Positions 1 to 13,046 of a stretch of 64,000 bases of DNA are shown here, piece after piece. The notes under the pieces were generated by a model that saw nothing but the letters and a program-made list of their open reading frames with translations, was not told where the DNA came from and searched no databases. The stretch's first letter is position 1. Every line of letters starts with the position of its first letter. A program made the position numbers and the translations under genes. Source of the stretch: Melanopsichium pennsylvanicum (lineage: Eukaryota > Basidiomycota > Ustilaginomycetes > Ustilaginales); assembly GCA_900208305.1 (NCBI GenBank), contig OAPG01000020.1, forward strand, positions 1-64,000, written 5' to 3'.

Positions 1-100
1 CCCTAACCCTAACCCTAACCCTAACCCTAACCCTAACCTAACCCTAACCCTAACCCTAACCCTAACCCTAACCCTAACCCTAACCCTAACCCTAACCCTA
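1..100. repeat. Telomeric repeat array (CCCTAA)n
   Basis: The window starts with uninterrupted CCCTAA units, the C-rich strand of a TTAGGG telomere, so position 1 is at or near the physical end of the chromosome. One unit at 37-41 is a 5-base CCTAA variant. The array stops at about 100, where GGATCC begins the subtelomeric sequence. Confidence 0.97.
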
Positions 101-177
101 GGGATCCAAGACGAAGACGGAAGGGAGACGGGATGCTTTGGCAGATGAGGGATCCGAAGGAGGTAGGCCCTCGCTGC

Positions 178-543
178 CTAGTTTTGAGACATTGCGGTCC
201 TGTCTTCCCCCAAGTATGTGATGGCTTTTGGCTGGCTGCCAGAATTGTTTCCTGTCAAGGAGCCTCGGGACCCGCTCGAGTTGGACGAGAAGGAGTTGTC
301 GGGACTGGCGGACGAGTCTTCGTCGTCGCTGATGAGGATCGGGTTGAGGCAGATCATTGGATAGCCGTAGGCGTTGACCAAATCCAATTCGGCCTGGATG
401 AGGTGCGCTTCGGCTTTGGGCTGACGGGCCAAGAAGTCGTGCTTGAAGTCAAAGTGATCTTGCGAGCAGATACGGCAGGACCGTGTCAGGGGGCGTTGTG
501 CCAAACTCAAGCTTTGCGCCGAGATCCGCTGAAACCGTCTGTT
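178..543 (-). pseudogene. 3' end of an unidentified subtelomeric protein-coding gene
   Basis: The minus frame is open from about 543 down to a TAG at 178. Its codons end mostly in C or G, as in the real genes of this window, which the overlapping plus-strand frame does not explain. The readable part has a CxxC (CRIC), a charged stretch ending in NAYGYPMICLNP, and an acidic and Ser-rich tail (SDDEDSSAS). There is no ATG at the upstream end, and the frame runs there into a dispersed repeat (484-656) before a TAA at 544-546. I read it as the C-terminal part of a gene cut by repeat sequence, or a last exon. I do not recognise the family. Confidence 0.4.
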
Positions 544-656
544 TTAGCGTGTTTGAGATTGAGACCTGATAAGCAGGCCGGTTCTATTGTGTTTTGCTAT
601 GAGACCTGCTGCGCAACTCTTGAGCTGACTGACCACTGTGAACACTCCGTTCAGAG
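484..656 (-). repeat. Dispersed subtelomeric repeat, copy 1
   Basis: This stretch shares a 19-base exact block (636-654) and a 14-base exact block (518-531) with 10982-11038 in the opposite orientation. It also shares a looser series of motifs (GTCAGRGGGCGTTG, then TGAAACC, then TGTTYTAGCG) with 1474-1560 in the same orientation. The spacing between blocks differs among copies, so the copies are partial and rearranged. Identity of the parent element is unknown. Confidence 0.5.
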
Positions 657-660
657 GTAA

Positions 661-1139
661 TGCGGCTCGTCTGTGTGTTGTAAGACCTTCACGATGCACG
701 AGTGCTCTTGATGCAAGTGTTGGTCACCGTCAGGGACTGCTTCGGATGGTCTTGAAGCTGTCGTGATAATGAATTGGCTACGGTGGAGGTTCCGTGACCG
801 CGGTTGAGGTTCCGCCTACAGTTGAGGTGCTGTAGTGTCAGTGATGGTGCTGACAATTGTCGATGAAGCTTGTCTCCTTATACTGAGGAGAACACAGACA
901 CTGGATAGCTGCAATACCGTATGATTGCAGCTGCTGACGAGAACTATATACTGAGTAACTGGTAACGACTTGTAAAGTAAAGACTGGGTTAATATAAAGT
1001 AGAGTGGATGAGTCCTGCTCCTCCACGACTGTAAAGACTGTGTTCTTATATACCTATGGCCCTCCAGGGGCTCCCTTTTGTCCGCTATGACCCTGGTACA
1101 CCAGAGTATCAATGGCCACCAGAGTTTCGACGTGTCCGC
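661..1139. other. Subtelomeric non-coding stretch, possible LTR remnant
   Basis: No convincing reading frame is present. A GGTTGAGGTTCCG-like motif is repeated around 785-825. The part from about 833 to 1060 is richer in A and T, with TATATA-like runs and few codon-like features, and resembles a worn promoter or LTR. Termini and target duplications cannot be shown. Confidence 0.3.
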
Positions 1140-1422
1140 GAGCTTGGGCCCCGTGCTAATCAATGCCGACTGTCATCAACTATGACAACCACGAGCTTGG
1201 GCCCTGTGTTAAACAATGCTGACTGCCCTCAACTATGACAACCACGAGCTTGGGCCCCGTGTTAAACAATACCAACTGCCAGCAACCATGTCGCCCTTGA
1301 GCTTGGGCCCCGTGCTAACCAGTGCTGGCTGTCAGCAACCATGACACACACAGCGGACGGTAGCTTGGGCCCCGTGCTAACCAGTGCTGGCTGTCAGCAA
1401 CCATGACACACACAGCGGACGG
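1140..1422 (+). repeat. Five-unit subtelomeric minisatellite
   Basis: Five tandem units start with the core GAGCTTGGGCCC at about 1140, 1193, 1246, 1299 and 1361. The first three are 53 bp. The last two are 62 bp, nearly identical to each other, and carry an added ACACACACAGCGGACGG segment. The units diverge toward the telomere and are most alike on the centromere side, suggesting recent duplication there. Confidence 0.85.
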
Positions 1423-1473
1423 TCCTACATCATGTTGCACCCTTCCATCAGGCCTCCTGTACCAGACGGAGGC

Positions 1474-1560
1474 TGTCAGAGGGCGTTGCACTGATATCGG
1501 ATGAAACCACGTGTTCTAGCGGATGTCAACCTGAAACCCAATAGAACACAGTGTTTCACC
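1474..1560 (-). repeat. Dispersed subtelomeric repeat, copy 2
   Basis: This short stretch at the 3' end of the disrupted gag gene resembles 484-610 in the same orientation. It shares the GGGCGTTG, TGAAACC and TGTTCTAGCG motifs in order. It overlaps the gag stop codon at 1556, so the repeat may be part of the old gag element's 3' region. Confidence 0.4.
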
Positions 1561-2556
1561 GGGTTTGAAATCCACCTCCGGTAACAGACCGTTCCAGGTA
1601 GATGTACTTCCCAGACTGGGGCAGCTTGTATGCCCGGGTGCGTACGCCATCCTTGTTGATGTACGCTACGTTGGCGGGGGCGTAGTTGGCTGCCAGGCCT
1701 GATCTGGGAGGGGCTCTGTTGGCATAGGCGCCCTGGGTCGGAATGCGCTCGACGGCGTTGCCGGCCGAGACGGAGACTGGAGCCGCAAAGACGGGGCTGT
1801 ACTGAAGCGGAGGCTGGGCAAATGTGCCTGCCTGAAGCTCGGTGCGCTTGTTGCAAGCGGTGGCGCGGCTGCCAGAGCAAAGAGCGGTGCGCCAAGGTCC
1901 TTCGAGACTACAAAGCTCAACGAGGAGCTTGTCCATGGTTGCCGTGGCGGACATGTGCGTCCTCACGTCCAGTTGCAGCAAGGCCGGAAGACCAAGGCGG
2001 ATCTTGTGCAGCAGGTCATGTTCGAGGCGCGTAGGATAGGCAGAGCGCAGGAGGGATAGCTTGGCGTAGAAGTACGCCGCAATGGACTCCTTGGGCCAAT
2101 CCCATTTCCTGTCGTCTGCGATGCGACGGATTTCGCTTGCGTCGGGCTGGAACGCATTGCGCAGGGCTGTGTCCCACTCGGCCCAGGCGGTGTTGAGCTG
2201 GGAGCGCTGTTGGGCGCTGACAAGTTGGTACCACTGCGCCGCCGTGTCGCGCAGGCACAGGGGCAGGGTGTCGACGATTGCAGCCTCCCAGCTGGGATCT
2301 TGACGGCTTTGGACAAGTGCGTTGACTTGTCCCAGGAAGAATTCGAGCTTGTCGGCGCTGCCGTCGAACGTTCTGATGTCCTCCGGTTTGATGGCTTGTC
2401 GGCGGGCGGCGCTGACTGCAGTGGCCGGCGAAGTGGCACGGGGCTGCTCGAGAGGAACGGGGACGGTTCTGGTGTCGGCCTGGGGAAGGGTTGAGTTGTC
2501 CTGAAGGCCGTTTCGTTGAAACACGCGGGTGCGAGCAAGTCTGGCGGCCTCGGCGG
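1556..2556 (-). pseudogene. Older retrotransposon gag, C-terminal part, split by the chromovirus
   Basis: This minus-strand frame encodes the larger part of a Gag-like protein. The core DGSADKLEFFLGQ and a following Trp/Leu-rich segment resemble the Ty3/Gypsy gag capsid domain, and the younger element's Gag has the similar DGSQDKLEDFLDQ. The frame is open to a TGA at 1556-1558 and has no CCHC zinc knuckle. Its N-terminal part lies 7.6 kb away at 10194-10457. Removing the inserted element and one copy of the target duplication joins the two into one 419-residue frame without a stop or shift. No pol follows it, so this was either a gag-only (non-autonomous) element or a gag-derived gene. It is now disrupted. 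Confidence 0.8.
2552..2556. repeat. Target site duplication GGCGG (left)
   Basis: These five bases flank the left LTR and match 10194-10198 beyond the right LTR, as expected from Ty3/Gypsy integrase. Confidence 0.9.
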
Positions 2557-2986
2557 TGTTAAGGCTGTAGGGTCTAGATACCGCGGGCGGCTACAGCCGG
2601 GATGGAGGCTACGGGTACGGAGAGGTCGTAGGCGGGGCGACACAGGCGGTCGGGGGTCAGAGCACACTACTGCGTTGCTATAGAGCTAACTAAGTAATAC
2701 ATGCGACGAGGTCCGGAGGCAACCTCATGTCAGGCGGGGGCGGGGTGGTAAGGTACAGGAACTATCGGTCACTTCCCACCGCGGCGTTGCAATGTTAGGT
2801 TGCCAACGGTCGTATCCTACGTACGGAGGGGCCAGCCGCGGTTGGGCGGTAGGAGGGTCGTGTCAGGCCGACCGCTCCGCTGCGAGGGGTCCGGAGAGGG
2901 TCGGTCGGGGCCTGATCACGACGATCGCTCAATCGGGAGGGGGGCCGAGCACCCCCTCTTTGGACTCCGGTTGGTAGGCACTAACA
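2557..2986 (-). repeat. 3' LTR of the chromovirus
   Basis: It is a 430-bp direct repeat of 9764-10193, with TGTTA at one end and TAACA at the other. It differs from the other LTR at 2805 (A for G), 2913 (T for C) and 2976 (A for G). All three are transitions, and the first two destroy a CpG present in the other copy. Confidence 0.95.
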
Positions 2987-2989
2987 TTA

Positions 2990-2997
2990 CCCCCCGG
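2990..2997 (-). other. Probable polypurine tract
   Basis: Read in element sense, a run CCGGGGGG ends four bases before the 3' LTR. A purine run at this place normally primes plus-strand DNA synthesis. The run is short and the call rests on position. Confidence 0.4.
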
Positions 2998-3220
2998 TTC
3001 AGGCCGACTGGTCCCCAGGCGGCTGATAGGACAGGAGGGCGAGGGGGGTCGTACTCCCTCAACCTTAATCTGCGCCAGGGGCGCCTCTCTGTACAAGTTG
3101 CGACGCTCGTCTCGGCAATTTAATTGCGGATGCGCAGCAATGAGGCAATACCACCCACAATGCCTTGGACCGGCGGAATTGACTGTGCGCCATTGCTCGT
3201 GCGTAGCTATCGAGGAGGGA

Positions 3221-3227
3221 TATAAGG
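3221..3227 (+). promoter_or_regulatory. TATA box of the antisense accessory gene
   Basis: TATAAGG lies 64 bases before the chosen ATG at 3291, and the leader between them is pyrimidine-rich (TTCC, CCCATTCTTC repeats). This is typical spacing for a short fungal 5' UTR and argues that the antisense gene has its own promoter. Confidence 0.5.
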
Positions 3228-3290
3228 ATGGGGTTCGACGGGTCTTCCTTCTCGATTTCCCCCATTCTTCCCCATTCTTGTTTTTTCGCA

Positions 3291-4745
3291 ATGTCGTCGC
3301 CACCAGCAGACGCTTCCTTGGATTGTCTTTTTTTTTCAATGTCGTCGTCACCAGTAGACGCTTCCATGGATTCCCCGGCCGACAACCCGTCGGCCGGTGT
3401 CAGTACCGTTCCCTCTCCGTCGCCTACGTCCGCGACGGCGGCAGCGTCGGCAACAGCAGCAGCAGCAACAACAACAACAGCACCAACAACAACAACAACG
3501 TTACCCGCTTCCGGAGGTGAGTCGATCGTGGTTCCGTTGTGATTCGGTTGCGGATGGGGGCCCAGAGGGCCTGACAACCACCGGTCGGTGCCGTGGAATG
3601 GGTTACTGACGTTTGTTCCCTCCCCCTTGTTTCGATTACGACAGATCGGCCGTCGGAGACCTCCGCTGGTCCCATCCGGGGGGTGCGCCGTTCTCCGCGT
3701 GCTCACCTTTCCCGGGGGGCCAACTCGGGCCGTCGCGAGCGCGCCGTGCGTCAACAGTCTGCTGATCCGTCGGCCATCCCTTCCTCTGCATCGACCAACA
3801 CTTCCCTCGTCCTGGCGCCCCGGAATTCGATGCCGTGGTCGCGTCCTTCGGTTCCCATCGAGATCACTCCGGAACTCGTTGGTGATGGTAAGTATTTGTT
3901 CCATTGCTGTGTTGATTGGGATCGCTACTGACGTTTGTGTTTCCGTGGCCGATACGACAGACCTTGCCCCGCTATGGGCCGAGACGTGGGGCGATTGCTA
4001 CGGCTGCGTATGCGCCGGCGTTGCCTGTGAGCGGGCGGGAGGCGATCTCCGCTGCCGTCGGTGTCAGGGGCAGCACGGGCAACCCTGCGACGCGGATATG
4101 CGCGGTAAGTATTTCCGTCGGGCGTCTGTCGCGATGTCCTGGGTGGTCGGCTGACTCTTGTTCCTCCTTTTGTTTTCCTCGACAGTCCCACCACTTGGCG
4201 GCGCCCAAGGTCCCCTCCGAATGAGGGTTTACGCGTGCTTGCTTGAGAGGTGGAGGTCCGGAGGGGTCGGTCGGCGTCGCCGCCCCCACCCCAACGTCAG
4301 GTTGTCGCTGAGGACACTTGGCGAGATCCCGGAGGAGGAGGAGGAACTGAGGGAGGAGGTGGCTCGGGTGGGCGCGGTGGGTCGGGAGCGGGAGGCGGCT
4401 CGCAAGCGAGCTAGGTCTCGCCCCGACCGTCCAGCCGAGGCTGCCCGAGAGCGGCGTCGCACTCGGGCGCGGGCCCAAGGCCAGCCGGGGGAGTCCGCTA
4501 CGGGCCTGGGGGACCTGGGTGCGGCCGTAAGGCGTGCCGAGTCCCTCTTCCACGGGGTGCAGGAGGGGACTGAGTTATTTCAACAGGGGCTGGCCGACGT
4601 GGCTGCGCTGTTGCTGACAGAGTCGCTGAGGACCGGCGGCGAGCGAGAGCTCCGCCGGATCAGCGAGATCCAGCAACTGTCGCAGAACACGCGACAGCAG
4701 GTGGACGTGGTCTGGGCGTGGTTGGAGGGCTTCCGGAGGGACTAG
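3291..4745 (+). CDS. Antisense spliced accessory gene of the retrotransposon, Zn2Cys6-like cluster plus charged C-terminus
   Basis: Exons are 3291-3516, 3645-3887, 3961-4104 and 4186-4745. Joined, they give 390 codons without a stop. Introns (128, 73 and 81 bp) have GTGAGT or GTAAGT donors, CTGAC branch sites and GACAG acceptors, and all three are in phase 1. Residues 1-75 are Ser/Pro/Ala/Thr-rich. Residues 169-199 hold six cysteines spaced CX2CX6CX8CX2CX7C, matching the fungal Zn2Cys6 (GAL4-type) cluster, though without its usual basic loop. From about 220 the protein is Glu/Arg-rich with probable coiled coil. The gene lies opposite to gag-pol, between pol and the 3' LTR, so its introns would survive retrotransposition. 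ATG 3291 was chosen for its context. ATG 3228 and 3339 are in frame, and 3339 begins a 48-bp duplication of the start. A role in regulating element or host transcription is inference. No homologue was searched. Confidence 0.75.
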
Positions 4746-4928
4746 CCCCGGGGCCCCTCCTCGAATGCACTTGTTTTCTTTTCTGTCGCTTGCGTGTGTG
4801 TGTGTCCGTGTGTGGGAGTGGGGGTGAGGGGAGCCCGACCGGGTCTCCTACCCCAGAGGTCGGGGACCGGAGGGGTTTTGGCTCCGGCGGGGGGGTCTCC
4901 CGACGGCGACCGTCGCTCGTATCCGTGC

Positions 4929-6044
4929 CTAACGCCGGGTAGGGGCCGGCTTGGTCGGGTTCGCGGCGTGGTACGCAGCGACCAGATCCGGGGCGCGGTC
5001 CACGTCTTCCGCCGGGACCCAGCTTGGGGGGTACCCTACCCAGGAGACCTTGTACTGTAGGCGTCCGGCGCGGCGGCGGGAGTCCAATACGCCCTCGACT
5101 TCGAAATTGGCGTAGTCGTCCTCCAGAGTAGTCGGTTGGGGGGCGTCGCTGGACTCCCTGACTCCGTCGGGGTATGGCTCCAGCATCTGTACGTGAAAGA
5201 CGGGATGGACCTTCCACGACGGAGGCAGGAGGAGTCGGTAGGCTCGGTCGCTAATCACCTCGTCGACTTTGAACGGGCCGGCGAGGGGGTTGGAGAGTTT
5301 GTGGGAGGGTCGGTCGCTGCGGAGGTGCTTGGTATGGAGGAGCACCAGGTCCCCCCGGCGGAACGAGACGTCGCTCCTGCGACGGTTAAACCACTTCGCG
5401 ACGGCAAGGTTGGCTTTGGCGATGGCGTCCTGGCACACCCGCACTTTATCCGCCGACGGAACGTTGGAGGTGGCCGGGGGGATGGAGGGGTGTGCCCGAG
5501 GTGCAAATGTGAAGCAAGCTATAGCCGGGGCGATGGTTGTGGTTGCCGACGGTCTTTGGTTCAGCGCGAGCTGGGCTGTCGGCAGGAGGGTTGCCCAGTC
5601 GCTGTGGTTGTAGGCCGTATAGAAGCGGAGGAACAACTCCAGCGTCTGGTTGGCTCGCTCGGTCTGGCCATTTGTTTGAGGGTGGTAGGCCGACGAGTAA
5701 GACCCTTTAATCCGGAGGGCCCGGAGGAGCTCCGTCCAAACGGAAGCTACAAACGTGGTTCCTCGGTCAGATACAATGGTGTCCGGGAGGCCAAAGTATG
5801 AAAAGACGTAGCGGTGGAGCTGGTACGCCAAAGTCTCCGCCGTATCGGTTTTGTTTGCAGGAATGAAGACCACAAACTTGGTGAGGCGGTCGACGACTAC
5901 GAGAATGGAGTTGTAGGTGGTGCCGTTGGCAAGGGAGGGCGGGAGGTCAGTGATGTGGTCCATGGTAATAGTGGACCACGGCCGATCGGGAGGGACCGAC
6001 GGGAGAAGGTAGCCGTGGGGTTTGTGACGGGGGTGTTTTGCCCT
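4929..6044 (-). pseudogene. Integrase core and chromodomain, downstream of an in-frame TGA
   Basis: This continues the pol frame after the TGA at 6047-6045. It holds the integrase catalytic core, with the first Asp in MDHITD, the second in VSDRG and the Glu in QTERANQ, arranged as D,D-35-E. A linker and the GPF/Y-like LAGPFKVDEV segment follow, then a C-terminal chromodomain with the aromatic pattern YKVSWVGYPPSWVP. Known chromovirus chromodomains steer integration to marked chromatin. The stop removes this half from the polyprotein unless it is read through. Where the TGA stands, CxxC is normally followed by a basic residue, so a CGA to TGA change is the likely cause. Confidence 0.85.
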
Positions 6045-8492
6045 TCAGCAGGCCGCGCAAGAGGCGACATAGCTGTCGGTGTCCTGCACCATGGTTGGCC
6101 AGTAAAAACGTTGACGCATGAGATGGAGGGTCGTCTTGCGGCCAGGATGTCCCGCCGTAGGGTGGTCGTGCAGTAGGTGGAGTGCCTTGTCCCGTAATTG
6201 GGGTGGCAGGTAGACGTGACCCTCTGAGGTGTACGGGACACCATCGCGGACGGCAACGTTTGGGGGGAGGTTGGCCGCTTTCCGGAGGGCTTCGATCCAC
6301 TCCGTAGGCAGGGGGTCCGAGGAGTGTACGCCGGCTGCCCTTGCAAACAAGTTTGCAGGGAGGAGAGTGGCTTGGTTGGCGGGGTCTGGGCGCGACGGTC
6401 CGTCGGGGAACAAGTTGTGCCGGCGACTCAGAGCGTCGGGGCGGACGGCCTCCTTACCCGGACGGTAGTGGAGGACAAAGTCGAACTCAGCCAGGTCGGC
6501 TTGCCAGCGGGCTTGGCGACGGTTGAGTTGTCGCTTCGTCTGAAAATACTGGAGCGCCTGGTGGTCGGTGTAAATGAGGAACGGTCGGGTGAGGCCATGG
6601 AGGTAGTGTCTCCAAGCGCCGCAGGCGTCTACGATAGCCAGGAGTTCCTTGTCGTGGATTTTGTAGTTACGCTCCGCCGGGATCATCTTTCGCGACCAGT
6701 ATGCCACAGGATGGAGGGTATGCGAGCGGCTGTTGGGCTCGGCGCTCGCGTCGGCGCCCTGCTGTGGGTGCCACTGCGACAGCACGGCGGCTACCACAGC
6801 ATCGCTCGCGTCTGTTTCGACGACGGTGTAGAGCGTTGGAGAGAAGTGCCGGAGGATAGGGGCAGAGGTGAACGCTTCTTTCAGCCGGTTGAAGGCTGCC
6901 GTTGCTTCCGGGGGCAGGTCTACCTTTCCGGAGGCTCCTCCTTTCAGGAGGTCGGTGAGGGGGGCCGCTACACGAGAATAGTGGCGGATGAAGCGACGGT
7001 AGAAGTTGGCGAATCCGAGGAAGACTTGGATCTGTCGGATCGACTGTGGTGGCGGCCACTCCAAGACTGTACTGACCTTGGTCGGGTCCATGGAGAGGCC
7101 GTCGGGACTGACAAGGTAGCCGAGGAACTCGATGGAGTCGGTGTGGAATTCGCATTTGTCCGGAGCGCAATACAGCTGATGCTTCCGTAATCGATCCAAC
7201 ACTTGGCAGACGTGGTGGTGGTGGTCGGCCTCGTTGTCGGAGAAGACTAGGATGTCGTCCAGATATACGATGACGGACACGTCTAAGAGATCCGACAGCA
7301 CGTGGTTCATGAGCCGTTGGAAGGTCGCCGGAGCGTTGCAGAGGCCGAACGGCATGACGAGGTATTCGTAGCTGCCGTAGCGCGTGCGGAATGCGGTCTT
7401 CCATTCGTGGCCGGGGGCGATCCGGAGGAGGTTGTAGGCACCCTTCAGGTCAAATTTAGTGAAGATCTTGGCCGTCGCCAGCCGATCAAGGTGTTCGGAG
7501 ATGAGGGGGATCGGGTAGCAATCCTTGACGGTGATGGCGTTGAGGGCGCGGTAGTCCACACACGGCCGGAGGCGACCGTCCTTCTTTGGTACAAAAAGGA
7601 GGGGCGCGGCAGCTTGGCTACTCGACGGTCGGATGAAGCCAATGGCCTGCATCTTCCGGAGGTAGTTCCGGAGCTCCTCTTGTTCGCGGTGCGACAGTGA
7701 GTAGAGTGCGCCGTAGGGAGGGGTTTTGCCAGCCTCCAGGTTGATCTCGTGGTCGTGTGGGCGGTGGGGAGGCAATTGGTCGGCCCTCTCGGCGTCGAAG
7801 ACGTCGGCGTACTCGCGGTACTCTGGCGGTAGGACGGCGAGGTCGGTCGCGGAAGCTCGGAGGGGCAGTAGCTCCTCTTCCGGTTCTGGGAGGACCAGCA
7901 GGTCCTCCTCAGTGGAGACCAGCTGTCGCCGGCCGACCAAGTTGTGGAGTTCGTTCTTTTCGATTTTGGGGTTGGAGGGCACCGTGACGGTGTGGGGGAC
8001 CCGGAGGTCCCACGTACGGAGGGTATAGTTTGGCTCCGGCCTGGCGGCCTCGATCCAATCCATCCCCAACAGCATGTTGTGGGAGGTCATGGGGGTGATG
8101 AAGAGTTGGTGGCGTGAGGTGATGCAGTGGTTGTTGATGATGATATCCACCGCCGCGTGGCGACTGATGGCGGCTGACATGCCCTGGAGGAATGTGGCGT
8201 GGACGGATTTACGGAGGGAGTGGGTAAGAATGTTGGCCGTTGCGACCATTTCGGGAGTAATGAAAGAGGCGGTGGCGCCGGTATCGAGCAAGGCAAGGCC
8301 TTGCGTGTCGCCGACGCTTACCAAGCATTCGTAGGTTGGTAAGGTAGGGTGTCGATGGATCCGGAGAACGGATCCCTCTTGCTCCACGACGGGAGTGTCG
8401 GTCCGGTGGGCTGCCCAGAATGCTGCGGCGAGCACCCGGAGCTGGCTTAGGTTGTCGATGGGTTCGGACCGAAAGAACCCATCGACCCTTAG
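6045..8492 (-). CDS. Pol: protease, reverse transcriptase, RNase H, integrase zinc domain
   Basis: The frame is expressed as a -1 extension of gag. It is open from about 8525, overlaps the gag end and has no ATG near its start. Domains in order are an aspartic protease (LLDTGATASF, DTGA at 8285-8274), reverse transcriptase (VPKKDGRLRPCVDYR, then YLDDILVFS at 7265-7254), RNase H (VVETDASDAVV, YTDHQAL, DALSRR) and the HHCC zinc domain of integrase (HDHPTAGHPG to CAAC). A TGA at 6047-6045 then ends the frame right after the second CxxC cysteine. The reading frame is otherwise undamaged over 815 codons. It makes the enzymes for reverse transcription in a cytoplasmic particle. Confidence 0.92.
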   Translation of the reverse strand, partial: LRVDGFFRSEPIDNLSQLRVLAAAFWAAHRTDTPVVEQEGSVLRIHRHPTLPTYECLVSVGDTQGLALLDTGATASFITPEMVATANILTHSLRKSVHATFLQGMSAAISRHAAVDIIINNHCITSRHQLFITPMTSHNMLLGMDWIEAARPEPNYTLRTWDLRVPHTVTVPSNPKIEKNELHNLVGRRQLVSTEEDLLVLPEPEEELLPLRASATDLAVLPPEYREYADVFDAERADQLPPHRPHDHEINLEAGKTPPYGALYSLSHREQEELRNYLRKMQAIGFIRPSSSQAAAPLLFVPKKDGRLRPCVDYRALNAITVKDCYPIPLISEHLDRLATAKIFTKFDLKGAYNLLRIAPGHEWKTAFRTRYGSYEYLVMPFGLCNAPATFQRLMNHVLSDLLDVSVIVYLDDILVFSDNEADHHHHVCQVLDRLRKHQLYCAPDKCEFHTDSIEFLGYLVSPDGLSMDPTKVSTVLEWPPPQSIRQIQVFLGFANFYRRFIRHYSRVAAPLTDLLKGGASGKVDLPPEATAAFNRLKEAFTSAPILRHFSPTLYTVVETDASDAVVAAVLSQWHPQQGADASAEPNSRSHTLHPVAYWSRKMIPAERNYKIHDKELLAIVDACGAWRHYLHGLTRPFLIYTDHQALQYFQTKRQLNRRQARWQADLAEFDFVLHYRPGKEAVRPDALSRRHNLFPDGPSRPDPANQATLLPANLFARAAGVHSSDPLPTEWIEALRKAANLPPNVAVRDGVPYTSEGHVYLPPQLRDKALHLLHDHPTAGHPGRKTTLHLMRQRFYWPTMVQDTDSYVASCAAC

Positions 8493-8498
8493 TTTCCC
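8454..8498 (-). promoter_or_regulatory. Programmed -1 frameshift signal at the gag-pol junction
   Basis: In element sense the heptamer G GGA AAC (8498-8492) lies directly before the gag stop TAA (8491-8489), in the register required for simultaneous -1 slippage. After a 5-base spacer (TAAGG) comes a perfect 12-bp hairpin, GTCGATGGGTTC with its complement GAACCCATCGAC around a 9-base loop (8486-8454). Slippage leads straight into the open pol frame. Heptamer, spacer and stem together match the known eukaryotic and retroviral rule. Confidence 0.85.
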
Positions 8499-9724
8499 TC
8501 CGGGGGATCCTCCGAATCCGATAGGTCACTGTCGGGGTTGGAGGCTGACCCGTCATCCATGGGGTTGACGAGTATAGTCCCGGAATCGTTGTCGAATGAA
8601 ATAGCATGTGCCCGGAGAGTTTGTGTTTGGGGCGCCTTTGGGCAGTCACGGGCCAAATGGTTGCTGCCACCGCAGCCGAAGCACTGCCCGTTGGTCCGTC
8701 GGTGCTGGCGAAGGCGTTCCGCCGCATCACGCGTAGGGTCCTTGGCCGGTAGTGGAGGTCGTTCCATTTTGCGGGGTCCCTCCGGGGGCTCTCGTTTGGC
8801 CGTCACGGCTGGGAGGGGCGGTCGGTGTCGCAGCTGTGACTCCGCGGGTCTTGTCGTGGCCTCCTGTATCACCTGCATCCGGCGCTCCGTGACAATGGCG
8901 GCGTTGATGAAGTCACGGATGTCGGTCATCGGCACGTGGGTGAGCTTTTCCCGTAGGCGCGGCCGGAGGCTTTGTTCAAACAGCATCAACGCCTGCTGCT
9001 GGTCGGTCAGGTGCGATTTGGCCGTCAGCGACATGAACTCCGCCGCGTGCTCCAATACTGATCCCTTCTGGCGGAGGGCATTCAGTTGGAGGCGTGCGGT
9101 GTAGCTGGGGTCGGGATCGCCATGGACGCGACGGAGGTCGGCGCAAAAGGCCCTCCAGGAGCTCATCCAGGGCGGATCCTCCCCCTCCTGTTGTCGCACA
9201 TTGCAAATGCGGGTTCGTGGTTTGCCCGTCATGTTGCCGATGGCAAACATGATGCGACGGGCATCCGTCGGAAACTTGGAGGGATTAGCCTCGAAGTTGA
9301 GTTCGCATTGATCCAAGAAGTCCTCCAGTTTGTCTTGGCTGCCGTCCCATTCCGGAGCCTGGAGTCGAATCTCTGGCTCGCGGGGCGCGGCCTCCACGTA
9401 GACGGGGGCTACGGTTGGCGGGGGGACCTGGGCAGCGGTTGCTCCTTGGTAGTGCTGAGAAGACTCCGGTCTAGGTTGATCCTCCCTGGGGAAGAAGGCG
9501 GCCTCTAACAGAGCGGTAATGCGCCGCTGTTGTTCAGAGGTTTCACGCAGAAGCGCCAGGATATCCACTTGCCCTTGGACCAAGGTGGTCAGGGCGGCGG
9601 GCGGTTCGCCCGAGGGTGCAACAACGCTGGCGGGCTCGTCTCCGCTGGGGGAGATGGTGGGAGCGTCTCCCTCCGCTTGGGGGGAGGCGTCCGTTTGGTT
9701 TCGTCGGTTGGAGCGTGTACTCAT
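8489..9724 (-). CDS. Gag polyprotein of the chromovirus
   Basis: This is a 411-residue Gag from ATG 9724 (MSTRSNRRNQ), 40 bases inside the 5' LTR boundary. A longer open frame reaches into the LTR but has no conserved content there. A disordered, acidic N-terminus is followed by a capsid-like helical region beginning near the EWDGSQDKLEDFLDQ motif (about residues 125-290), a basic Pro-rich linker and one CCHC zinc knuckle, CFGCGGSNHLARDC (about residue 355). The C-terminus is acidic. Gag forms the particle and packages RNA. Its stop codon is part of the frameshift signal that produces Gag-Pol. Confidence 0.92.
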   Translation of the reverse strand: MSTRSNRRNQTDASPQAEGDAPTISPSGDEPASVVAPSGEPPAALTTLVQGQVDILALLRETSEQQRRITALLEAAFFPREDQPRPESSQHYQGATAAQVPPPTVAPVYVEAAPREPEIRLQAPEWDGSQDKLEDFLDQCELNFEANPSKFPTDARRIMFAIGNMTGKPRTRICNVRQQEGEDPPWMSSWRAFCADLRRVHGDPDPSYTARLQLNALRQKGSVLEHAAEFMSLTAKSHLTDQQQALMLFEQSLRPRLREKLTHVPMTDIRDFINAAIVTERRMQVIQEATTRPAESQLRHRPPLPAVTAKREPPEGPRKMERPPLPAKDPTRDAAERLRQHRRTNGQCFGCGGSNHLARDCPKAPQTQTLRAHAISFDNDSGTILVNPMDDGSASNPDSDLSDSEDPPEGN

Positions 9725-9746
9725 CTTGGTTACGACGTCGTCCCGT

Positions 9747-9763
9747 GGGGAGGTCGCATGTAA
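9747..9763 (-). other. Primer-binding region, possible self-priming type
   Basis: The bases just inside the 5' LTR read TTACATGCGACCTCC in element sense. They do not start with TGG, as a tRNA-primed site would. Ten bases (TACATGCGAC, 9762-9753) are exactly complementary to GTCGCATGTA within the 5' LTR (9914-9905). In Tf1 the 5' end of the transcript folds back on the primer site and primes synthesis, and the same arrangement would fit here. Confidence 0.55.
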
Positions 9764-10193
9764 TGTTAAGGCTGTAGGGTCTAGATACCGCGGGCGGCTA
9801 CAGCCGGGATGGAGGCTACGGGTACGGAGAGGTCGTAGGCGGGGCGACACAGGCGGTCGGGGGTCAGAGCACACTACTGCGTTGCTATAGAGCTAACTAA
9901 GTAATACATGCGACGAGGTCCGGAGGCAACCTCATGTCAGGCGGGGGCGGGGTGGTAAGGTACAGGAACTATCGGTCACTTCCCACCGCGGCGTTGCAAT
10001 GTTAGGTTGCCGACGGTCGTATCCTACGTACGGAGGGGCCAGCCGCGGTTGGGCGGTAGGAGGGTCGTGTCAGGCCGACCGCTCCGCTGCGAGGGGTCCG
10101 GAGAGGGTCGGTCGGGGCCCGATCACGACGATCGCTCAATCGGGAGGGGGGCCGAGCACCCCCTCTTTGGACTCCGGTTGGTGGGCACTAACA
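9764..10193 (-). repeat. 5' LTR of the chromovirus
   Basis: This 430-bp LTR pairs with 2557-2986 at 427 of 430 positions. It carries G, C and G at 10012, 10120 and 10183, where the other LTR has A, T and A. It should hold the promoter for gag-pol on the minus strand. I see a GC-rich stretch near 9937-9950 but no clear TATA box. Confidence 0.95.
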
Positions 10194-10198
10194 GGCGG
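10194..10198. repeat. Target site duplication GGCGG (right)
   Basis: It matches 2552-2556 across the element. Confidence 0.9.
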
Positions 10199-10457
10199 CC
10201 TCTTCTTCGACCCTCTGTTGAAGCTGGGCGGCGGACTTGACGGGGGCCGACGAGGCGGGCTGCTGTCGGATTGAAGCCTGGAGCTGCTCGAAGCGCTGGT
10301 CGAACTCGCGGCTGAGTTGAGCAGAGACGGCTCGTACGATGTCCTCGGCGCTGAGAGGAGGAGGCGTCTGAGGTTCAGGCGAGACTGAGGAGGCGACGTC
10401 GCCCCCCTGCTGAGACGTTTCGGCTGCCTGGCCGGTTTGCTTTCCCTTCGGAGGCAT
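10194..10457 (-). pseudogene. Older retrotransposon gag, N-terminal part, split by the chromovirus
   Basis: This encodes the first 88 residues of the disrupted gag gene, from ATG 10457 (MPPKGKQTGQAAE) through a Gln/Ser-rich stretch and a helical segment (AQLSREFDQRFEQLQ) to EEEAA at the insertion point. The joined product continues in frame at 2551 with EAARLARTRV. The open frame extends upstream to 10733, but that part is Ser/His-rich and looks like a 5' leader read by chance. The ATG at 10457 is therefore preferred. Confidence 0.75.
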
Positions 10458-10981
10458 CTTGACGAGTGTATGCGCCTGTATGCGGGGACGGGTGCTTGAG
10501 GCGGCGCGAATGCGAGAATGAATGGACGTCGAGGGGTCCACAAAGGCGAGGAGGTGTCTACAGAGTGTAGAGAAGGTGTGGAGAATGGAGGGGAGGTTCG
10601 ACGGATGTATGGAGGATGATTGACGAATGTTCGAGGAGATGGCGATGGCGAGCGAATTGGAAGTGAGTGGCGGAGATCGTGTAATGAAGTCTAAGAGTGA
10701 AGTGGGCGCTGAGAGAATCACTCTTGTCACCATGTGATGCCGTGGGCATGCAAAGTGATTGGAGCAAAGATGATGGCATTACAGGAAGCTAGAGACGGCA
10801 AGGACGAAGGTGATACCTTTGCCCGAGGCCACGTTCAACCCGGCCAAAAAGGTCCAGGCTGAGCGTGACGCGCTACACTCCCAAGTTTGCAGGAGATGTT
10901 GTAGACATTGACCAGCACTTGCATTAAGGACACTTGTGTGTAGCGCAGGCCACACAATTATTTGGACAAGGCACACTACAC
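10458..10981. other. 5' region of the old gag gene and intergenic sequence
   Basis: On the minus strand the first 280 bases are a pyrimidine-rich leader (TCCACACC, TCTCTACAC runs) that may be the old element's untranslated region or LTR. No matching second LTR was found on the other side of the old gag. Beyond about 10740 no gene is visible. Confidence 0.35.
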
Positions 10982-11795: not shown

Positions 11796-13046
11796 TCACT
11801 TCTCAGAGAGTTCTTTGACGCCGGGAAGAGTCTTGCCCTCGAGAAGCTCAAGGGAGGCACCGCCACCAGTCGAGCAGTGCGAGATGCCCTCTTCAGCGCC
11901 GTACTTTGCGACCACGGTAGCGGTGTCACCACCACCAACAATGACGGTGGAACCGTTCTTCTCAGCCTCGAGACAAGCGTCGAGCATGGCTTTAGAGCCG
12001 CCAGCGAAGTTGTCGAACTCGAACACACCAGCAGGACCATTCCAAAGGATGGTCTTGGCCTTGAGAATAGTCTCGCGGAACTTCTTGCGCGAATCCTCAC
12101 CGGCGTCGAGTCCCATCCACTCGTCAGGGATCCCCTCGGCGTCGGTAGCGGAACCGGTCTTGGCGTTCTTGTCAAACTTGTCAGCAGTGATGTAGTCGAC
12201 GGGGAAGACGAGCTCGACGCCGTTCTTCTTGGCCTTCTCGACGAGTTCGGCGACCTTGTGGGAACCGGCCTCGTCAAAGAGCGAAGTGCCGATCTTTACG
12301 TTGTTGAGGGTTTTTTTGAAGGTGAAAGCCATACCACCGCAGATGATGAGCGAGTTGACCTTGTCCAACATGTTGTCAATGAGCTGGATCTTGTCCGAGA
12401 CCTTGGCACCACCGAGGATGGCAAGGAAAGGACGCTCGGGCGACTCGAGGGCCTTAGCGAAGAACTCGAGTTCCTTTTTCATGAGGAAACCGGCAGCACG
12501 CTGGGGCAGCTGAACACCGACCATGGAAGAGTGAGCACGGTGTGCGGTACCGAAAGCGTCGTTGATGTAGACATCACCGAGCTTGGTAAGAGAAGCACGA
12601 AACTCCTCGACCTTCTTGGGATCGGCCTTGACCTTCTCACCAGCCTCGTTGGTACCCTTGCCCTCCTCCTCAACGTGGTATCGGAGGTTCTCGAGCAAGA
12701 AAATCTTGCCACCAGTGGCAGAGGCAACGGCCTTCTCAGTGTCAGCACCAACACAGTCGGGAAGGAACTCGACATCCTTGTGGAGAAGCTTGGAGACCTC
12801 GGCAGCGACGGGCTTGAGCGAATACTTGGGAACGGCCTTGCCATCAGGGCGGCCCATGTGGGACATGAGAACGACAGTCTTTGCCTGCTTCTCGATGGCG
12901 TACTTGATGGTGGGAAGAGCAGCAACGATCCGCTGGTTGTTGGTGATCTTGGTGTCGTCCATGGGGACGTTGAAGTCGACACGGATCAAGACCTTCTTGT
13001 CTTTGAGGTCGACATCGGTGATACCAAGCTTGCTAGAGAGAGACAT
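11796..13046 (-). CDS. PGK1: Phosphoglycerate kinase
   Basis: This intronless 416-residue enzyme transfers phosphate between 1,3-bisphosphoglycerate and ADP in cytosolic glycolysis. It is full length for the family (yeast 416). The N-domain has RVDFNVP near residue 22, the HMGRPDG loop near 63 and LENLRYH near 118. The C-domain carries GGAKVSDK near 213, the [14 protein letters not shown] loop near 335 and the nucleotide-binding GGGDTA near 373. ATG 13046 (MSLSSKLG) fits the family start. It shares a 677-bp divergent intergenic region with the RPC4 gene. Its position about 11 kb from the telomere, beside a retrotransposon, is unusual for such a highly expressed gene, but nothing in the sequence suggests damage. 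Confidence 0.98.

What the first reader, a model, noticed from the sequence alone, without database searches (positions are those of the whole stretch)
3291..4745. Intron-bearing gene with a Zn2Cys6-spaced cluster encoded antisense inside a chromovirus
Seen: between pol and the 3' LTR, on the strand opposite to gag-pol, four exons join through three introns with full donor, branch and acceptor signals into one open 390-codon frame, behind a TATA box. Six cysteines (residues 169-199) are spaced CX2CX6CX8CX2CX7C, inside the range of GAL4-type clusters. Known: some plant LTR elements carry extra antisense ORFs, but I know of no fungal chromovirus with a spliced, regulator-like antisense gene. Inference: antisense introns are invisible to splicing of the genomic RNA, so they persist through retrotransposition. 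The product could regulate the LTR promoter or host genes, and transcription toward pol could make antisense RNA that limits the element.
Basis: partly seen in the sequence, partly recalled or inferred. Interest (0 to 1): 0.88.

Follow-up and report, generated by a model that had tools for sequence, protein, structure and literature searches.

The report
Antisense spliced gene in smut retrotransposons
A jumping element in the genome of a smut fungus carries, on its opposite strand, an extra intron-bearing gene that selection has kept intact in nearly all examined copies, and similar backward genes sit in related elements, so it looks like a real accessory gene whose job is still unknown.

Summary
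It belongs to the family: of 36 examined loci that cover it whole, 34 have no stop or frameshift; splice signals and TATA box are nearly invariant; none of 37 loci lost an intron; non-CpG substitutions are biased towards synonymous in this frame. Other chromovirus families of the genome (integrases 37-44% identical) carry an antisense, intron-bearing gene at the same place with matching cysteine spacing; those have relatives in Ustilago. Homology of the window's product to that group is suggested by position and spacing, not shown by sequence. It is not a demonstrable GAL4-type protein: no Pfam match, no basic region. An antisense gene in a fungal chromovirus is already in print (Boty brtn), so this is a new variant of a known kind. 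Most likely a nucleic-acid-binding accessory protein acting on the element's own expression (inferred); one high-copy lineage lacks it, so it seems dispensable in cis. Expression is untested.

The parts
2557..10193 (-). complete Ty3/gypsy chromovirus; target duplication GGCGG at 2552-2556 and 10194-10198
   Evidence: LTR pair and duplication; gag, protease, RT, RNase H, integrase and chromodomain matches
2557..2986 (-). 3' LTR (430 bp)
   Evidence: 427 of 430 identical to 9764-10193
9764..10193 (-). 5' LTR (430 bp)
3219..3227 (+). TATA box of the antisense gene
   Evidence: GATATAAGG in 38 of 39 rows; the other row does not reach it
3291..3516 (+). exon 1 (older start ATG at 3339; 3291 lies in a 48-bp duplication)
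3517..3644 (+). intron 1
   Evidence: GT in 36 of 37 loci, AG in 37 of 37; CTGAC in 39 of 39 rows
3645..3887 (+). exon 2
3888..3960 (+). intron 2
   Evidence: GT and AG in 37 of 37 loci
3961..4104 (+). exon 3 (144 nt, in frame; Cys cluster, residues 169-199)
   Evidence: 7 Cys kept in 38 of 39 rows, the exception being a frameshifted copy; 0 of 18 non-synonymous variants hit a Cys, P 0.055
4105..4185 (+). intron 3
   Evidence: GT and AG in 37 of 37 loci
4186..4745 (+). exon 4 and stop; charged region
   Evidence: group A versus B dN/dS 0.33; free of stops in 39 of 42 matched places, 4 of the 42 partial
4929..5963 (-). pol, 3' part: integrase core and chromodomain
   Evidence: rve 2.4e-11, Chromo 6.5e-8
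6045..8435 (-). pol, 5' part: protease, RT, RNase H, H2C2; an in-frame stop parts it from the integrase core in this copy
   Evidence: 20 of the 36 rows of the same family lie in a frame of 1198 codons or more
8489..9724 (-). gag, with a CCHC knuckle just below its cut-off
   Evidence: Ty3_capsid and Retrotrans_gag at or above cut-off

Best explanation
An element-encoded accessory gene. SHOWN: a chromovirus family carries between pol and its 3' LTR, on the opposite strand, a four-exon reading frame with conserved splice signals that evolves under purifying selection. INFERRED: it is transcribed from its own TATA promoter inside the element towards pol, spliced, and translated into a nuclear protein whose Cys cluster binds zinc and whose basic N-terminal and charged C-terminal parts help it bind DNA or RNA. 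It would act mainly on its own element (LTR activity or RNA fate), in trans across copies, like the antisense accessory genes of some retroviruses and perhaps the antisense ORFs of plant Ty3 elements. The introns survive because the reverse-transcribed RNA is the other strand, in which they are not spliced. My split: real gene 0.93; nucleic-acid-binding self-regulator about 0.45.
For: 34 of 36 loci that cover the gene have no stop or frameshift; 13 of 14 exon length changes are multiples of three, in 9 open copies, some inherited in common, while introns vary by single bases. Non-CpG substitution types: 51 synonymous against 33.4 expected, 0 of 2000 simulations as high; of the other 5 frames only the antiparallel one that shares third positions shows an excess (45 against 30.9). 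Group A against the diverged group B: pS 0.070, pN 0.036, introns 0.065; exon 4 dN/dS 0.33. Integrase of 32 of these copies: non-synonymous observed/expected 0.65, against 60/76.6 here. A second group of antisense genes in other chromovirus families: 106 synonymous against 52.1 expected, dN/dS 0.29; 39 of 39 places with an integrase match within 2.5 kb lie downstream and opposite; relatives in Ustilago species.
Against: No RNA evidence. A weak fold model of a relative (mean pLDDT 42.9). No significant Pfam, NCBIfam or solved-structure match. Exon 3 has only 8 non-CpG variants, too few to test, and exon 1 alone shows no constraint. 4 of 6 deposited models skip exon 3. Group A against group C gives dN/dS 0.72 overall and 0.99 in exon 4, and within A 0.75. 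Shared variants are richer in non-synonymous changes than singletons (2.13 against 1.16), against the simplest expectation; I read that as recurrent CpG transitions. A high-copy lineage lacks the gene.
Confidence: 0.6

Rival explanations
1. The antisense transcript is the functional product: transcription towards pol makes antisense or double-stranded RNA that limits the element, and the reading frame is secondary.
For: Convergent orientation; TATA in 38 of 39 rows; a review discusses this for other elements (PMC7264820, passages).
Against: Synonymous excess, indels in threes and conserved Cys residues point to a selected protein. A purely RNA function does not explain codon-level constraint.
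Confidence: 0.15
2. The protein acts on the host, for example on host transcription or silencing, rather than on its own element.
For: Zinc-cluster-like spacing; charged regions; amplified families keep it.
Against: No targets known; a lineage without the gene amplified in the same genome. The data do not separate host from element targets.
Confidence: 0.2
3. A captured passenger gene or chance open frame without function.
For: Recent copies look nearly neutral (within group A dN/dS 0.75, A against C 0.72), as expected after insertion of any copy.
Against: Constraint between diverged groups and in the second gene group; relatives of the second group in other smut species; no clear host source in the genome.
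Confidence: 0.05
4. The window's gene and the antisense genes of the other chromovirus families are unrelated and arose separately at the same place.
For: Profile comparison gives probability 0.5% and a reversed control 0.9%; with cysteines held fixed the domains are no more alike than shuffles (P 0.18 to 0.73), and with all residues shuffled P is 0.05 to 0.54; intron positions differ. The window's product itself matched only M. pennsylvanicum proteins (6, where only the 7996 best candidates were scored; 5).
Against: Same site, same strand, same spacing CX2CX6C...CX2CX7C in all six compared.
Confidence: 0.45

Closest known systems
brtn, antisense gene of Boty (Ty3/gypsy, Botrytis cinerea; Zhao et al. 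2011, paper not seen, only its title and mentions)
   Same: Fungal element; a Boty-like gag-pol is described with a CHROMO domain (PMC4227169 passage); extra gene antisense between pol and 3' LTR (PMC7264820 passages).
   Different: Ascomycete host. I had no brtn sequence, so homology, introns and Cys cluster are untested.
Antisense aORFs of plant Ty3 elements (Grande gene23, RIRE2, Retand with TRP28 domain; PMC7264820, PMC11963269, passages)
   Same: Position and orientation; present in most copies; own promoter and nuclear product reported for Grande; function unknown.
   Different: Other domains; plants. The word intron does not occur in the main text of either paper.
GAL4-type Zn2Cys6 cluster (PF00172)
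   Same: Six cysteines with permitted spacing.
   Different: No Pfam match; at most one basic residue between the second and third cysteines; fold not shown.
HBZ of HTLV-1 (spliced antisense retroviral regulator; mostly recalled, named in a PMC11963269 passage)
   Same: Antisense, at the 3' end; regulator by analogy.
   Different: bZIP protein of a retrovirus (recalled); no sequence relation claimed or tested.

Membership tests
Chromovirus (Ty3/gypsy with chromodomain) | Order protease-RT-RNase H-integrase with a chromodomain at the C-terminus | tested here: met
   RVT_1 9.3e-38, rve 2.4e-11, Chromo 6.5e-8, all above cut-off; pol carries a stop in this copy
Chromovirus (Ty3/gypsy with chromodomain) | LTR pair and 5-bp target duplication | tested here: met
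   430-bp LTRs, 3 differences, GGCGG
Antisense additional ORF between pol and 3' LTR (aORF-3R) | Opposite strand, between pol and 3' LTR | tested here: met
Antisense additional ORF between pol and 3' LTR (aORF-3R) | Present in most copies and conserved like other element genes | tested here: met
Antisense additional ORF between pol and 3' LTR (aORF-3R) | Transcribed from its own promoter | not testable with these tools
   conserved TATA only
GAL4-type Zn2Cys6 (PF00172) | Cys spacing CX2CX6CX5-12CX2CX6-8C (recalled) | tested here: met
   CX2CX6CX8CX2CX7C; in the second group the middle gap is 18-20, outside that range
GAL4-type Zn2Cys6 (PF00172) | Match to the family model | tested here: not met
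   no match of the spliced product or the domain at E 1 or 10, nor of the second group; 67 other places of the genome match (a six-frame scan that cannot see a domain split by an intron)
GAL4-type Zn2Cys6 (PF00172) | Run of basic residues between the second and third Cys (recalled) | tested here: not met
   VCAGVA here; AKLGVP, ARLDIP, FNLGIP in the second group, at most one basic residue
GAL4-type Zn2Cys6 (PF00172) | Binuclear zinc fold | tested here: inconclusive
   model of a second-group protein has pLDDT 33-55 there; the window's domain was not folded
brtn family | Sequence homology to BRTN | not tested
   no sequence at hand

The most novel reading that the evidence does not exclude
Smut chromoviruses share an old antisense accessory gene for a spliced zinc-cluster protein that regulates the element in trans. 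It would have been passed on across families whose integrases are only 37-44% identical and across smut genera, with the cluster on an in-frame cassette exon in the window's family, so that alternative splicing could make a form with the cluster and a competing form without it; one lineage then dropped the gene and lives off the others.
Probability: 0.25. Interest if true: 0.82.

Novelty: new variant of a known kind. Interest (0 to 1): 0.62.

Why it matters
Accessory genes beyond gag-pol are seldom described in fungal LTR elements (my impression, from the searches named in the report) and their roles are unknown. Here several families in one genome and related proteins in other smuts give natural replicates, with and without the gene, that make function testable. 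The case also shows how introns can persist in a retroelement: on the strand that is not reverse transcribed. Deposited models of these genes are named uncharacterized proteins, one of them a cluster of 75 member sequences in Ustilago sp. UG-2017a, so smut proteomes may hold a hidden set of transposon genes.

Tried and rejected
Host-gene capture in this copy only: rejected. A function of the antiparallel frame: its synonymous excess is weaker and follows from shared third positions, in the window's family (45 against 30.9 expected, beside 51 against 33.4) and in family 3 (87 against 48.7, beside 106 against 52.1). Homology of the window's product to the second group: tried by multiple alignment, profile comparison and shuffles; not shown. 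The first test, singletons against shared variants, went against the simple expectation and led to the CpG-controlled test. No fold search was run, because the model was too weak. A scan of viral contigs for the Ustilago relative found none. Promoter/terminator and tRNA scans made for bacteria gave nothing.

Counting notes. The own-genome searches score only the best candidates, so copy numbers are lower bounds (one search scored 40 of 90; one search scored 40 of 226). In the 39-row alignment L044 repeats locus L020 and L039 repeats part of L005; one search drops both and counts 37 loci, of which L036 does not reach the end of the gene. Short fragments among the 44 rows were not aligned. Searches left out L036, L039 and L034b but kept L044, which does not change the variant types counted; one search kept L044 and L034b. 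Group A, B and C were set by me from overall identity. The simulations treat variant types as independent. For family 3, 18 copies were aligned of the 34 exon-2 places at 84% or more: the 10 best loci and 8 picked for diversity; L048, the same locus as L046, was dropped, the partial L027 left out, and L064 and L067 were cut at the start by my fetch. One search used 44 of the 90 rows (exon-2 side; one short fragment left out) and 69 of the 115 rows, copied by hand.

Full report
WHAT IS THERE. The window begins at a telomere and holds a complete chromovirus at 2557-10193 on the minus strand, with 430-bp LTRs that differ at 3 positions and a GGCGG target duplication. Pfam finds gag, protease, RT, RNase H, integrase and chromodomain above cut-off and a CCHC knuckle just below it. 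Pol is interrupted by an in-frame stop in this copy; of the 36 integrase rows of this family 20 lie in a frame of 1198 codons or more (two of those 20 with a stop inside the matched part). The genome is Melanopsichium pennsylvanicum: the lengths of the contigs that hold six deposited MEPE proteins equal contig lengths of this assembly.

THE ANTISENSE GENE. The ATG at 3291 lies in a 48-bp duplication; 14 of 39 rows have a gap there, one of them because it does not reach that far. ATG 3339 is the older start, kept in 33 of the 34 intact copies.

IT BELONGS TO THE FAMILY. I examined 37 distinct loci with the gene. Of 36 that cover it whole, 34 have neither stop nor frameshift. Donors are GT in 36, 37 and 37 of 37, acceptors AG in 37 of 37 for each intron. 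TATA is in 38 of 39 rows (the other does not reach it) and CTGAC in 39 of 39 rows for each intron. No locus has lost an intron. Of 14 exon length changes 13 are multiples of three, some inherited in common; introns differ by single bases.

SELECTION. The copies are full of CpG transitions: 177 of 374 substitution types in the segment. Controlling for base change and CpG context, non-CpG changes in the spliced frame are 51 synonymous, 60 non-synonymous and 2 stop, against 33.4, 76.6 and 3.0 expected; 0 of 2000 simulations had as many synonymous. With CpG changes included the excess is smaller (89 against 73.5, P 0.02). The only other frame with an excess shares third positions with it. By exon, constraint is clear in exons 2 and 4, absent in exon 1 and untestable in exon 3 (8 non-CpG variants). 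Between group A and the diverged group B, pS is 0.070, pN 0.036 and introns 0.065 (dN/dS 0.51; by exon 1.00, 0.51, 0.68, 0.33); A against C gives 0.72 and within A 0.75, as expected if copies drift after insertion. The integrase of 32 of these copies gives 30 synonymous against 14.9 expected. One result against: shared variants have a higher N/S than singletons, which I attribute to recurrent CpG transitions.

THE CLUSTER. Seven cysteines in exon 3 hold in 38 of 39 rows, the exception being a frameshifted copy; 0 of 18 non-synonymous variants there hit a cysteine (P 0.055). Six of them fit CX2CX6CX8CX2CX7C. No Pfam family or solved structure matches, and PF00172 finds 67 other places in the genome but not these genes. 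Exon 3 is 144 nt, so skipping keeps the frame: of 6 deposited proteins 4 skip it, 1 keeps it in a fused model, and 1 holds only the exon-4 part. Those models are predictions; I do not know whether RNA supported them.

A SECOND GROUP. In other chromovirus families of the genome (integrases 37-44% identical to the window's) I found antisense genes at the same place. Family 3 has two exons and one intron of 70-89 nt; donors are GT in 17 of 18 rows and acceptors AG in 18 of 18; exon lengths change only by threes in the 16 complete copies, of which 8 are free of internal stops and 8 carry one. Non-CpG changes: 106 synonymous against 52.1 expected, 0 of 3000 simulations as high; dN/dS 0.29 between young and diverged copies. 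Families 4 and 5 have relatives of it with the intron in the same codon, read by eye. Of 44 places checked, 39 have an integrase match within 2.5 kb, and all 39 lie downstream of it on the opposite strand; 5 had none near. Related proteins are deposited for Ustilago sp. UG-2017a (a cluster of 75 members), U. trichophora and U. hordei (where only the 7995 best candidates were scored). Two relatives, P0038 of Ustilago sp. and P0037 of no named organism, end exactly at the intron codon. Whether those Ustilago genes lie antisense in an element I could not see.

ARE THE TWO GROUPS RELATED? Position, strand and the spacing CX2CX6C...CX2CX7C agree. But the profile comparison fails, a reversed control does as well, residues other than cysteine are no more alike than shuffles, and introns differ. 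The window's product itself matched only M. pennsylvanicum proteins. I leave this open.

DISPENSABLE IN CIS. Family 2 shares its post-pol end with family 5 (98.3 and 98.9% over 539 bases for two copies) but has only about 460 bp between integrase and LTR, without the gene. At least 19 places show that short form, against 7 places, some partial, with the family-5 gene. So the element seems able to multiply without its own copy, perhaps helped in trans.

WHAT IT MAY DO. The basic N-terminal stretch, the cluster and a charged C-terminal part suggest a nuclear nucleic-acid-binding protein; this is inference. The fold model of a second-group protein is weak (mean pLDDT 42.9, pTM 0.34), so I drew nothing from it. 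A self-acting regulator is my first choice because authors propose that for antisense genes at this site in retroviruses and plant elements (PMC7264820 and PMC11963269, passages).

NOVELTY. [quoted passage not shown] What I did not find described is a spliced one, one with a Cys6 cluster, or one in Basidiomycota: searches, listings only, apart from passages of five papers (PMC9603552, PMC7264820, PMC11963269, PMC8365987, PMC4227169). The library lacks most subscription journals, and Zhao et al. 2011 was not seen.

Noticed in passing
L045 (G000:C18:123000-127500) and L058-L060: A high-copy chromovirus form (at least 19 places) appears to be a version of family 5 that has lost its antisense gene; a natural with/without comparison.
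   Followed up: partly
protein P0006 (MEPE_01710), G000:C3 near 506573-507218: A deposited gene model joins exons 2-3 of the window family's antisense gene to SNase and Tudor domains; a possible exon capture or an annotation error.
   Followed up: partly
window 483-1586 and 1556-2524: LTR of a family-2 type element and a gag-like ORF of another element; the chromovirus inserted near the start of that ORF, which may continue at 10188-10733.
   Followed up: partly
window 1-103: Telomere repeats (CCCTAA)n: the element lies in a subtelomere.
   Followed up: no
alignment, window 3200-4900: Strong CpG transition bias among copies (177 of 374 substitution types), which suggests cytosine methylation or a related process.
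   Followed up: partly
L046, L049-L057 and L062-L069: The intron of the family-3 antisense gene varies from 70 to 89 nt while exons of complete copies change only in threes.
   Followed up: yes
window 11796-13046: Minus-strand ORF of 416 codons that looks like phosphoglycerate kinase (recognised by eye, no search).
   Followed up: no
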